Shown here: piece by piece, positions 1-11,039 of the stretch
How positions within the stretch are numbered: position 1 is the first letter of the stretch
Layout of the letters: each line of letters opens with the position of its first letter
DNA from: a virus
Length of the DNA: 26,335 bases
Direction: 5' to 3' (one strand)
Virus record (IMG/VR): IMGVR_UViG_3300023220_000371
Span: 1 to 26,335 of that record
Program-made: the position numbers and the translations under genes
Notes under the pieces: generated by a model
What the model was told of the DNA's origin: nothing
Database searches by the model: none
What the model saw: the letters and a program-made list of their open reading frames with translations, nothing else

Positions 1-144
1 TGACGATGTAAAATCGTCATCCCGGTGTTCTAGGGTCTGTAGAAAAGCCCGGAGATCCATACCGGGCTTTTCTAGTTTAGCCAAGCTCTATTACAATCTC
101 AAATTTGCGTGTAAGGGGAAATTCTTCGGCTAGTATCTCTTTCA
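1..144. repeat. Left arm of 144-bp perfect inverted repeat
   Basis: Bases 1-144 are the exact reverse complement of 1115-1258 (position i pairs with 1259-i); identity ends at 145/1114. The arm contains a small hairpin (1-19), a 12-bp stem hairpin, and the last 21 codons plus stop of the leftward gene at 77-337. The arm starts at the first base of the window, so the repeat may be longer than seen. It could be a real inversion or duplication, or a fold-back chimera at a contig end. Confidence 0.95.
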
Positions 145-8230: not shown

Positions 8231-8641
8231 ATGAAAGTCATCATTGCAGGCTCTAGATCAATCACGGATTACGATATCGTTACAAGTATCATTGAAAGAA
8301 GCCACCAAGATTTAGAACATAGGCTTCGAGTTGCTATCTCATTTTCCGAAGTTATCTACGGCGATGCTATCGGGGTTGATAAACTTGCTAAAAGATGGGC
8401 AATATTTAATAATATCCCTCATAAGCCATTTAAACCTAATTATTGGGCATACGGCAGGTATAAGGCTCCTAAAATCCGAAATACAGAAATGGCTAAATAT
8501 GTCTCAAAACCTTATGGCGCTCTCATTGCTATCTGGAACGGCAAGATTCCAAGTGGAACAGGCGACATGATCTTGAAGGCTCACAAATACGGCCTATACG
8601 TTGTTGTATCTATTTATGACCCTAGTTCAAACGGTGGATGA
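8231..8641 (+). CDS. SLOG-family protein (DUF2493-like)
   Basis: 136 residues, Rossmann-like. MKVIIAGSRSI is the nucleotide-binding start of the SLOG/DUF2493 family, followed by SEVIYGDAIGVDKLAKRWA, a variant of the family GGARGAD-LA motif, RNTEMAKY, and LIAIWNGKIPSGTGDMILKA near the end. The superfamily binds nucleotides or nucleotide-derived ligands; the phage members have no established role. Its stop overlaps the start of the next gene. Confidence 0.75.
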   Translation: MKVIIAGSRSITDYDIVTSIIERSHQDLEHRLRVAISFSEVIYGDAIGVDKLAKRWAIFNNIPHKPFKPNYWAYGRYKAPKIRNTEMAKYVSKPYGALIAIWNGKIPSGTGDMILKAHKYGLYVVVSIYDPSSNGG

Positions 8642-8876: not shown

Positions 8877-9140
8877 ATGAATACACAAAAACGACCCTGG
8901 ACGCTTAAAGAGATTGCCTTCTTGATATTCGTCGTTGCTCTTGTTGTACTGGTTGCCCTATTGGTGATGGGAACAGCGCCACAGGTAGGGCAACCAGAGC
9001 AAGATATCACCGGCTATATCACCGGTATCATTGCCAGCCTATTGATCATAGGCGCAGGCATATACATCATCCGCAGACAACGCCGCGCCGCAAAAGGAGA
9101 CTTTAAATCATACCGGCCACCGAAAAGGAGGAAAAGATAA
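8877..9140 (+). CDS. Small two-helix membrane protein
   Basis: 87 residues from ATG 8877 (AAGATGAATACAC), 2 nt after the previous stop. Two hydrophobic segments (about 11-32 and 46-64) are joined by a short polar loop; the tail is very basic and ends KRRKR. An inner-membrane location with a cytoplasmic basic tail is likely. Its TAA stop is part of the first GATAACC repeat of the array that follows, so the array most likely begins on this transcript. Confidence 0.55.
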   Translation: MNTQKRPWTLKEIAFLIFVVALVVLVALLVMGTAPQVGQPEQDITGYITGIIASLLIIGAGIYIIRRQRRAAKGDFKSYRPPKRRKR

Positions 9141-9465
9141 CCATCGGTGATGAGCGAGCCAATATTGAACAGATATCCAAGACAACAAAGCGAGCCTAAG
9201 TAAAAAAGATAACCAATCAGGCCTAGCGTGCCATAAATAGCCAGATATCCAGCCTCGCCAAGCGAGCCACAATGTAAGAGATATCCGATACGATGTAGCG
9301 TGCCACACACAACAAGTTAACCACCCTTACTTAGCGAGCCAGAAACAACCGGATAACCAGTCATTATGAGCGAGTCAAAAGAATCTATATACCCATTGAG
9401 TAGAAGCGAGCCATAGTGGGTGAGATAACCATTGCTTAATAGCGAGCCAAACAACCTAGTTAACC
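9136..9465 (+). repeat. TIGR-like array, left part
   Basis: Two short repeats alternate every 18 nt. GCGAGCC-type copies lie at 9154, 9190, 9226, 9262, 9298, 9334, 9370, 9406 and 9442; GATAWCC-type copies at 9136, 9172, 9208, 9244, 9280, 9316, 9352, 9388, 9424 and 9459. The full period is 36 nt and the gaps are 11 nt (10 in the last). Nearly every motif is flanked by A on both sides, so the unit reads as two 9-nt repeats (AGCGAGCCA and AGATAWCCA) and two 9-nt variable spacers. Several copies are variants (GCGTGCC, GCGAGTC, GTTAACC, TATACCC). The 36-nt length with two spacers is the published form of tigRNA arrays. Confidence 0.85.
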
Positions 9466-9481
9466 CAAACGGACAAGCAAT

Positions 9482-10402
9482 ATGGAATCTACAACAGACC
9501 ATAACATTGTACTACTCCGCACAATGTGCCGGGGTAACTACGACCTTCAAGGCGAGAGAATCAGAGCCGGGAATAGGCTCTGTACCAATTTCCGTTGGAA
9601 ACTCGGAATGTTGCCGGATGAAGCAGATAAAGACCTTCCTCCTGATGAAGCCAGAGCCAAGCGGGATAAGGAGAATAAGAAGATAATGAAGACCCTGAAA
9701 GACGCTTATAAGCTGATAACGGAAGGGGTAATCAATATCAGCAAGGCAAAGAAGTTTGCGTACGATGGGGTAATATCGGATTACGTTGAACTAGCAATGG
9801 TAGATCAGTACATGCGGATGATGAAACTTGAGGAGCGTGGCTTCCGGCAGCTTACCGAAGTATTGGAAAGGATACCGATCTACACCGAATTCCTAGAAGG
9901 AGTTAGGGGTTGCGGCCCGACCATGTCATCGGTGATTATATCGGAAATCGATATTACTAAAGCCAAGTATGCATCGTCTCTATGGATGTATTGCGGCCTT
10001 GACGTTGCACCGGATGGCAAGGGTAGATCAAGCAGGAAGGAGCACCTTATTGATAAGGAATATATCAACAAACAAGGGGAAGCAGATATCCGTAAGAGCC
10101 TGACGCATAAGCGGTTCCTCAAGACAAAGCTAGTGGGCAAGGAATGCTTCGGCGATTGCCTTATCAAAGCTAGGAGCGTTCCGTATTACGATATCTATGC
10201 CGGGTACAAGAACCGCATTCTAAACATGGAGGCTCACAAAGAAAAGAAGCCTGCACACGTACACAATATGGCGAAGCGGTACATGGTCAAGCAATTCCTG
10301 GTGCATCTGTATGAAGCATGGAGGCCATTGGAGGGGCTGCCATGTTACACGCCATATGCAGAAGCAAAGCTAGACATGGAGCCACATAATTCGGGGAGAT
10401 AA
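9482..10402 (+). CDS. Tas-like Nop/IS110-related protein without nuclease domain
   Basis: 306 residues. The N-terminus (NYDLQGERIRAGNRL, about 19-33) and a charged helical region (about 45-125) lead to a helix-hairpin-helix GVRGCGPTMSSVI (140-152), then SLWMYCGLDV (166-175) and a C-terminal helical block HNMAKRYMVKQFLVHLYEAWR (261-281) ending in EGLPCYTPYAEAKL. These are landmarks of the C-terminal domain of IS110 transposases, which is related to the Nop domain of box C/D RNPs. No DEDD/RuvC or HNH motif is visible. The gene lies between two halves of a 36-nt dual-spacer array, so I infer an RNA-guided DNA-binding Tas protein rather than a transposase. It starts 17 nt after the last left repeat; ATG 9524 is an alternative start. 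A nuclease-free form would bind rather than cut. Confidence 0.75.
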   Translation: MESTTDHNIVLLRTMCRGNYDLQGERIRAGNRLCTNFRWKLGMLPDEADKDLPPDEARAKRDKENKKIMKTLKDAYKLITEGVINISKAKKFAYDGVISDYVELAMVDQYMRMMKLEERGFRQLTEVLERIPIYTEFLEGVRGCGPTMSSVIISEIDITKAKYASSLWMYCGLDVAPDGKGRSSRKEHLIDKEYINKQGEADIRKSLTHKRFLKTKLVGKECFGDCLIKARSVPYYDIYAGYKNRILNMEAHKEKKPAHVHNMAKRYMVKQFLVHLYEAWRPLEGLPCYTPYAEAKLDMEPHNSGR

Positions 10403-10416
10403 GCCATGCCGAAAAA

Positions 10417-10903
10417 GATAACCATACCTCCAAAGCGAGCCGGGTAGCGCTAGATATCCACACTCTGCAAACGAGCCAGAAGCACAAAGATAACCAGATG
10501 ATTATAGCGAGCCAGTAGATGCCAGATAACCACACCCAATTAGCGAGCCATAGATTCCTAGATAACCAATTGTCTGAAGCGGGCCTAAGTAGCTAAGATA
10601 TCCATGAATAAGAAGCGAGCCTAGTCTACAATGATAACCAAGTACTTCTAGCGAGCCACCCCAATATAGATAACCCTGTCACCGAAGCGAGCCAGAAACT
10701 ACCAGATAACCAGTCATTCTTTGCGAGCCACGCTTTGATAGATATCCAAATGGGAGTAGCGAGCCACGTTGAAATAGATAACCAGACACAGTGAGCGAGC
10801 CTAATTAATTAAGATATCCCTCAGAAACAAGCGAGCCACACGGGACGAGATAACCACAAGGAAACAGCGAGCCAAGGGCAGTTAGATAACCAAATCCATC
10901 GAG
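10417..10903 (+). repeat. TIGR-like array, right part
   Basis: Fourteen GATAWCC copies at 10417 and every 36 nt to 10885, alternating with thirteen GCGAGCC-type copies at 10435 and every 36 nt to 10867. All gaps are 11 nt, and the phase never slips over about 470 nt. Only two GCGAGCC copies vary (ACGAGCC at 10471, GCGGGCC at 10579); the last position (10903) has decayed to GCGCTAT. This half is longer and more regular than the left half. It begins 15 nt after the tas-like gene stop, on the same strand. Confidence 0.88.
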
Positions 10904-10930
10904 CGCTATGATAAAGGAAAAGATAAAAGT

Positions 10931-10964
10931 GTGCCGGTGAGACCTTCCCAGGAGCCACCGGCAC
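10931..10964 (+). terminator. 9-bp stem hairpin after the array
   Basis: Perfect stem GTGCCGGTG / CACCGGCAC with a 16-nt loop, 28 nt after the last array position. There is no T-run, so it may be a factor-dependent stop or a 3'-end stabiliser of the array transcript. A smaller GCATC / GATGC hairpin follows near 10983-10996, just before the next gene. Confidence 0.5.
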
Positions 10965-11039
10965 AACCCCCACTAATACAAAGGCATCATGCGATGCTTC
11001 ACATAAGTTAAGGAACCATGAAAGAAGAAGCCAAGGACG

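What the first reader, a model, noticed from the sequence alone, without database searches (positions are those of the whole stretch)
9136..10903. TIGR-Tas-like dual-spacer array around a nuclease-free Nop/IS110-type protein
Seen: two 7-nt motifs (GCGAGCC, GATAWCC; 9 nt with flanking A's) alternate every 18 nt for about 20 periods of 36 nt, with variable 9-nt spacers, on both sides of a gene whose C-terminal half has IS110/Nop-domain landmarks (GVRGCGPT, YCGLDV, MAKRYMVKQFL). Known: TIGR-Tas systems have arrays processed to 36-nt tigRNAs with two spacers and a Tas protein with a Nop domain, some without nuclease, found in phages. Inference: this is such a system, and being nuclease-free it would bind DNA (regulation, blocking or competition between phages) rather than cut it.
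Basis: partly seen in the sequence, partly recalled or inferred. Interest (0 to 1): 0.95.

Follow-up and report, generated by a model that had tools for sequence, protein, structure and literature searches.

The report
Phage RNA-guided DNA-binding system (TIGR-TasA)
This phage carries a nuclease-free TIGR-Tas system, a recently described RNA-guided DNA-binding machine with 24 two-part guides; in four marine relatives the only guide kept while nearly all others changed matches tRNA genes, a first testable clue to what such systems target.

Summary
Two dual-repeat arrays, about 9135-9478 and 10403-10905, flank a 306-aa gene. They hold 24 loop repeats (AGATAWCCA) alternating with edge repeats (AGCGAGCCA), 9-nt spacers and an exact 36-nt period. 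The protein passes NCBIfam's TIGR-Tas cut-off. Its AlphaFold model (pLDDT 90) matches solved TasH and TasR (Z about 19) but starts where their nuclease domains end. So this is a TIGR-TasA locus in a tailed-phage contig: a new member of a published family, not a new kind.

Going further, a profile search found 110 relatives in IMG/VR, and nearly all the loci inspected carry 36-nt arrays. Edge-repeat pairing covaries, and the last box-C base matches between edge and loop in 62 of 63 loci. No guide set showed a convincing match to its own genome or to 2.6 Mb of related phage DNA. Guide content changes far faster than the tas gene.

One guide, conserved in four otherwise different arrays, is an exact 9+9-bp match to the tRNA D-arm in the geometry TasR uses. 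IMG/VR hits to its two variants lie overwhelmingly in tRNA genes. I could not assign targets to the window's own guides. Most likely it binds and bends foreign or host DNA without cutting it.

The parts
9135..9478 (+). upstream TIGR array: 10 loop repeats (AGATAWCCA), edge repeats AGCGAGCCA, 9-nt spacers, period 36; ends in a 3'-truncated edge (AGC) 3 nt before the tas ATG
9482..10402 (+). tasA: 306-aa solo Nop-domain Tas protein without nuclease domain
   Evidence: NCBIfam NF052498 104.8 bits, PF02371, PDB TasR/TasH by sequence and by fold
10403..10905 (+). downstream TIGR array: 14 guides; begins with 5'-truncated edge GCCA, ends with 3'-truncated edge AGCG
10930..10965 (+). strong stem-loop after the downstream array (-21.3 kcal/mol, z -4.4); terminator-like in place but without a U tract
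9333..9368 (+). guide 7 (GAAACAACC / GTCATTATG), related to guide 19
10686..10721 (+). guide 19 (GAAACTACC / GTCATTCTT): 15 of 18 spacer positions shared with guide 7

Best explanation
This is a phage-encoded TIGR-TasA system. The two arrays are transcribed along the + strand with tasA. TasA dimers, helped by a host RNase, yield 36-nt tigRNAs running from half edge through spacer A, loop and spacer B to half edge. Each RNP unwinds and sharply bends an 18-bp dsDNA site of sequence 5'-A.rc(B)-3', with spacers A and B pairing to opposite strands. Lacking RuvC and HNH, it binds without cutting and most likely blocks transcription, replication or processing at sites in foreign or host DNA rather than in the phage's own genome. 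Shown here: the array, the protein family, the predicted fold, the missing nuclease, repeat covariation, fast guide turnover and no detectable self-targets. Inferred from the published TasR/TasH work: processing, dimer, target geometry, bending. In four relatives one conserved guide fits tRNA genes in exactly this geometry, so tRNA genes are a plausible target class for the clade; this is not shown for the window's own guides.
For: Array far beyond chance. NF052498 hit above cut-off. TasR 9mty E 9e-11 and TasH 21kl E 3e-7 by sequence. Model pLDDT 90.2; VIA Z 19.5 to TasH 9vzx and 19.1 to TasR 9mty, rmsd 1.7 over 193 aa, with TasR aligned only from residue 110. An IMG/VR scan with the array motif alone brought 8 loci; apart from the query, 6 of them match the window Tas by tblastn at E <= 1 (L003, L005-L009). 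A profile search gave 110 relatives, with period 36 in nearly all loci inspected. Repeat covariation and box C matching between edge and loop. No self-target excess. Conserved guide = tRNA D-arm, 18 of 18, gap 0, opposite strands.
Against: No expression or RNA data. The target of the window's own guides is unknown. The tRNA match is one orthologous guide out of about 1,500; there is no general enrichment of tRNA matches. A weak excess of 17-of-18 hits in related phages (18 against 8.5 +/- 3.2 shuffled) means that phage targets are not excluded.
Confidence: 0.78

Rival explanations
1. TasA acts as an RNA-guided aid to phage integration: DNA bending at tRNA genes (classic attachment sites) helps an integrase.
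For: Proposed by Faure et al. for TasA (PMC12045711). The conserved guide of relatives fits tRNA genes.
Against: Tyrosine integrases pass cut-off in 5 of 42 records and serine recombinases in 1 of 35. None was found in the five records related to the tRNA-guide arrays (G001-G005) nor in the window, though many records are fragments.
Confidence: 0.07
2. Self-regulation: guides direct TasA to promoters or genes of the phage's own genome.
For: Nuclease-free effectors suit regulation; the locus lies between early and late genes.
Against: No window guide matches the window beyond control. Own-genome matches across the relatives are 3 (16 of 18) against 2 in the shuffled-pair control and 11 in the A+B control. 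Guides turn over almost completely between phages with 86-93% identical Tas.
Confidence: 0.05
3. An IS110-family transposase remnant beside a chance or structural repeat.
For: PF02371 match; PHROGs label these proteins transposase.
Against: No DEDD domain. IS621/ISCro4 match less well (Z 14) than TasR/TasH (Z 19). NCBIfam IS110 model 20.9 bits against cut-off 140. The array accompanies tas across relatives.
Confidence: 0.01
4. Box C/D snoRNP-like guide system acting on RNA rather than DNA.
For: Nop fold and C/D-like boxes; an RNA target cannot be excluded for a nuclease-free Tas.
Against: Nop5/Prp31 similarity is only Z about 7.5. In the one assigned guide spacer A is antisense and spacer B sense to the tRNA and the two halves are contiguous, as dsDNA pairing requires. 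TasR did not act on RNA.
Confidence: 0.06

Closest known systems
TIGR-TasA systems with dual-repeat arrays (Faure et al. 2025, PMC12045711; e.g. FpTIGR)
   Same: solo Nop-domain protein; alternating edge and loop repeats; 9-nt spacers; 36-nt unit; arrays up- and downstream; truncated edges at array ends; phage origin
   Different: box D is AG and the edge is AGCGAGCCA here, against UG...CCA reported for TasR arrays; the clade has a longer N-terminal helical segment (about residues 41-100) and a beta-hairpin (190-206) absent from the shorter Tas relatives L002 and L003; hairpin without U tract after the array; not tested experimentally
TasR (RuvC) and TasH (HNH) TIGR effectors, PDB 9mty, 9vzx, 21kl
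   Same: Nop domain fold, Z about 19, 25-31% identity over the aligned part
   Different: the N-terminal nuclease domain is missing
IS110/IS621 bridge-RNA recombinases
   Same: Nop-like RNA-binding domain (Z 14), PF02371
   Different: no DEDD domain, array of guides instead of one bridge RNA
Nop5/Prp31 box C/D family
   Same: Nop fold (Z about 7.5), C/D-like anchors
   Different: much weaker structural match; dual-spacer array instead of single snoRNA genes; kink-turn and L7Ae partner were not looked for

Membership tests
TIGR-Tas (dual-repeat) | array of two alternating 8-12-nt repeats with about 9-nt spacers, 36-nt unit | tested here: met
TIGR-Tas (dual-repeat) | array adjacent to a Nop-domain protein of the Tas family | tested here: met
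   NF052498 104.8 bits, cut-off 100; fold Z about 19 to TasR/TasH
TIGR-Tas (dual-repeat) | boxes covary between edge and loop; extra edge pair supported by covariation | tested here: met
   last box-C base equal in 62 of 63 loci; edge pairs 2-7 (GC/AT/GU) and 3-6 (CG/UA) above independence, 1061 against 855 and 1098 against 885 Watson-Crick. Consensus repeats were chosen with a pairing filter, but unfiltered consensuses agree
TIGR-Tas (dual-repeat) | arrays start with 5'-truncated and end with 3'-truncated edge repeat | tested here: met
   downstream array GCCA...AGCG; upstream array ends AGC, but its start lacks a clear truncated edge
TIGR-Tas (dual-repeat) | predicted rho-independent terminator after array | tested here: inconclusive
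   stable hairpin 10930-10965, z -4.4, no U tract; terminator scan negative on the + strand
TIGR-Tas (dual-repeat) | processing to 36-nt tigRNA and tigRNA-guided dsDNA binding | not testable with these tools
   needs small-RNA sequencing and binding assays
TasA subtype | no RuvC or HNH domain | tested here: met
   model aligns to TasR from residue 110 and TasH from about 60; no nuclease Pfam hit
TasR / TasH subtypes | N-terminal RuvC or HNH nuclease | tested here: not met
IS110 transposase | DEDD domain plus Transposase_20 with family-level score | tested here: not met
   only PF02371; NF033542 20.9 bits, cut-off 140
TasA-ParB operon subtype | parB-like gene in the tas operon | tested here: not met
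   no ParB_N hit in the window record

The most novel reading that the evidence does not exclude
Phage TIGR-TasA systems carry a fast-changing guide set aimed at host and rival-phage DNA, with tRNA genes as one conserved target class: the RNP sits on the D-arm of tRNA genes (host loci or the tRNA clusters of large competing phages) and silences or marks them. The window's system would work the same way with guides of unknown target.
Probability: 0.3. Interest if true: 0.85.

Novelty: new member of a known kind. Interest (0 to 1): 0.6.

Why it matters
The natural targets of TIGR systems, the job of the nuclease-free TasA and the way arrays change are stated open questions (PMC12045711). The window adds a clean 24-guide TasA locus. 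Its relatives give two handles: guide content is replaced while the tas gene stays nearly unchanged, and one guide kept across otherwise different arrays fits tRNA genes as an exact contiguous 9+9 match in the TasR geometry. The second predicts an 18-bp binding site that can be tested directly.

Tried and rejected
Close-relative search with the window protein alone: nothing. Similarity to named phages and plasmids: only Microcystis phage Mvi-JY20, 31%. Guides against own genome and related phages (0.85 Mb, then 2.6 Mb): no convincing excess over A+B and shuffled-pair controls. Near-duplicate guides as allelic coding targets: no 3-base periodicity, p 0.84. Composite pattern of window guides 7/19 in IMG/VR: 13 hits, only two of them from the same phage, no shared gene otherwise, taken as chance. 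General tRNA enrichment among guides: none; a gap-2 tRNA-like guide of L069 hit one non-tRNA region of related contigs instead. tRNA pattern in 198 genomes of the phylum of the Spirochaetaceae MAG: none, so no bacterial host is identified. An apparent zero sharing of guides between L028 and L030 was a one-base register error of mine; they share three. ParB operon not seen. Rfam and tRNA scans of the window empty.

Full report
What is there. The window is the whole of one IMG/VR virus record of 26,335 bases, a tailed-phage contig with a DnaC-like helicase loader, RuvC-like resolvase, major head protein, tail terminator, major tail protein and tape measure. At 9135-10905 a 306-codon gene is flanked by two arrays on the same strand. 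Each array alternates AGCGAGCCA and AGATAWCCA every 18 nt, with 9-nt variable spacers, giving an exact 36-nt period. The compound motif occurs 19 times with at most one mismatch against 0.01 expected. There are 24 loop repeats: 10 upstream and 14 downstream. The downstream array starts with GCCA, a 5'-truncated edge, directly after the tas stop codon, and ends with AGCG, a 3'-truncated edge. These are the boundary rules published for TIGR arrays. A stable hairpin without U tract follows at 10930-10965.

The protein. NCBIfam's TIGR-Tas model scores 104.8 bits, just above its cut-off of 100. Pfam gives only the IS110 C-terminal domain that Tas proteins share. By sequence the best solved structures are TasR (9mty) and TasH (21kl). 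A 41-sequence alignment of the window and IMG/VR relatives gave a model of pLDDT 90.2 and pTM 0.84. It aligns to TasH at Z 19.5 and to TasR at Z 19.1 with rmsd 1.7 over 193 residues, above IS621/ISCro4 (Z about 14) and Nop5/Prp31 (about 7.5). The alignment starts at TasR residue 110 and TasH residue 60, so the nuclease domains are absent. The protein is therefore TasA-type. NCBI's family name says endonuclease, which does not fit this member.

Relatives. A scan of IMG/VR with the array motif alone, without the protein, brought 8 loci, of which six (L003, L005-L009) encode a match to the window Tas at E <= 1, five of them full ORFs and L007 a truncated one at the locus edge. A profile of three proteins then found 110 IMG/VR relatives, 80 of them kept, and only two in the collection of 84,980 bacterial and archaeal species. 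The best period of nearly every locus is exactly 36. Edge repeats vary as AGCGAGCCA, AACGAGTCA, AGTGAACCA, AATGTATCA and AGCGTGCCA, so that positions 2-7 and 3-6 stay paired. The last box-C base (A or G) agrees between edge and loop in 62 of 63 loci. This is the symmetry rule reported for the Tas dimer. A caution: the per-locus consensuses were picked with a pairing filter, but the unfiltered list shows the same forms. A few full-length relatives (L022, L036, L037, L041, L042, L064) have no visible 36-nt array within the DNA held.

Guide turnover. L013 and L016 have identical Tas proteins and flanks 93-97% identical. They share guides at both ends of the array, while the middle is replaced or reordered. 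L011, L012, L013 and L021 (Tas 86-93% identical) share essentially none, with one exception below. Within arrays, diverged copies of guides are common, and the window has one such pair, guides 7 and 19, alike at 15 of 18 positions. The differences show no codon periodicity over the clade, so duplication with drift is as good a reading as matching to allelic targets.

Targets. The published 8-nt 3' overhang of TasR implies that a target reads 5'-A.rc(B)-3'; this is my derivation. Scored this way, window guides have no site in the window beyond control. About 1,500 distinct guides of the clade have no clear excess in 2.6 Mb of the same and related phages. So neither fixed self-regulation nor attack on close relatives is supported.

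The exception. One guide, CTAACCAAA / ATAGCTCAG with the unusual loop GCACAACCA, is identical in L012, L013 and L016 and differs by one base in L011, while nearly all neighbours differ. I chose it for scanning because it was the only guide seen to be shared between diverged arrays, before knowing what it matched. Its composite is ATAGCTCAGTTTGGTTAG on the other strand, the D-arm of tRNA. The exact IMG/VR scan gave 20 contigs; 18 of 21 sites lie inside ARAGORN tRNA genes on the sense strand. The L011 variant ATAGCTCAGTCTGGTTAG gave 17 contigs with 15 of 17 sites in tRNA genes. Against 61 tRNAs from loci fetched for other reasons, these two guides rank first (17 of 18) and second (16 of 18) of 1,514; the next reaches 15 and the rest 14 or less. 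The phage records with this guide carry no tRNA gene themselves in the DNA held. Contiguity, gap 0 and opposite strands fit dsDNA recognition by the TasR rule; an RNA target would use spacer A only. The limits: this is one orthologous guide, there is no general tRNA excess, the host is unknown, and none of 198 genomes of the phylum of the Spirochaetaceae MAG holds the site.

Function. Without a nuclease, binding with strong DNA bending is the expected activity (inference from TasR). Integration aid is possible but integrases are rare in these records, and no ParB gene is in the window. Blocking of foreign or host DNA is the most economical reading, since guides change fast and miss the own genome.

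Verdict. It is a new member of a known kind. The added value is the clade-wide evidence on guide turnover and the tRNA-gene candidate target.

Noticed in passing
window 1-144 and 1115-1258: A perfect 144-nt inverted repeat at the contig's left end; looks like an assembly artefact, though a real terminal inversion is not excluded.
   Followed up: partly
L011 6555, L012 6627, L013 6571, L016 6772: Conserved array unit with unusual loop GCACAACCA whose composite target is the tRNA D-arm; nearly all other guides in these arrays differ.
   Followed up: yes
L013 versus L016 arrays: Guides conserved at both array ends, middle replaced: not the one-ended growth of CRISPR arrays.
   Followed up: partly
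L022, L036, L037, L041, L042, L064: Full-length TasA genes with no visible 36-nt array within the DNA held; stem-loop arrays, distant arrays or lost arrays are possible.
   Followed up: no
L065 and L073: Very long arrays: one search counted about 79 guides at L065 and about 109 at L073 in one phage contig each.
   Followed up: no
window 8231-8641: YspA-type SLOG-family protein (PF10686) upstream of the tas locus; function in the phage unknown.
   Followed up: no
window 9138-9140 and 10400-10402: The stop codons of the upstream gene and of tasA lie inside or abut repeat units, so gene ends and arrays are interlocked.
   Followed up: no
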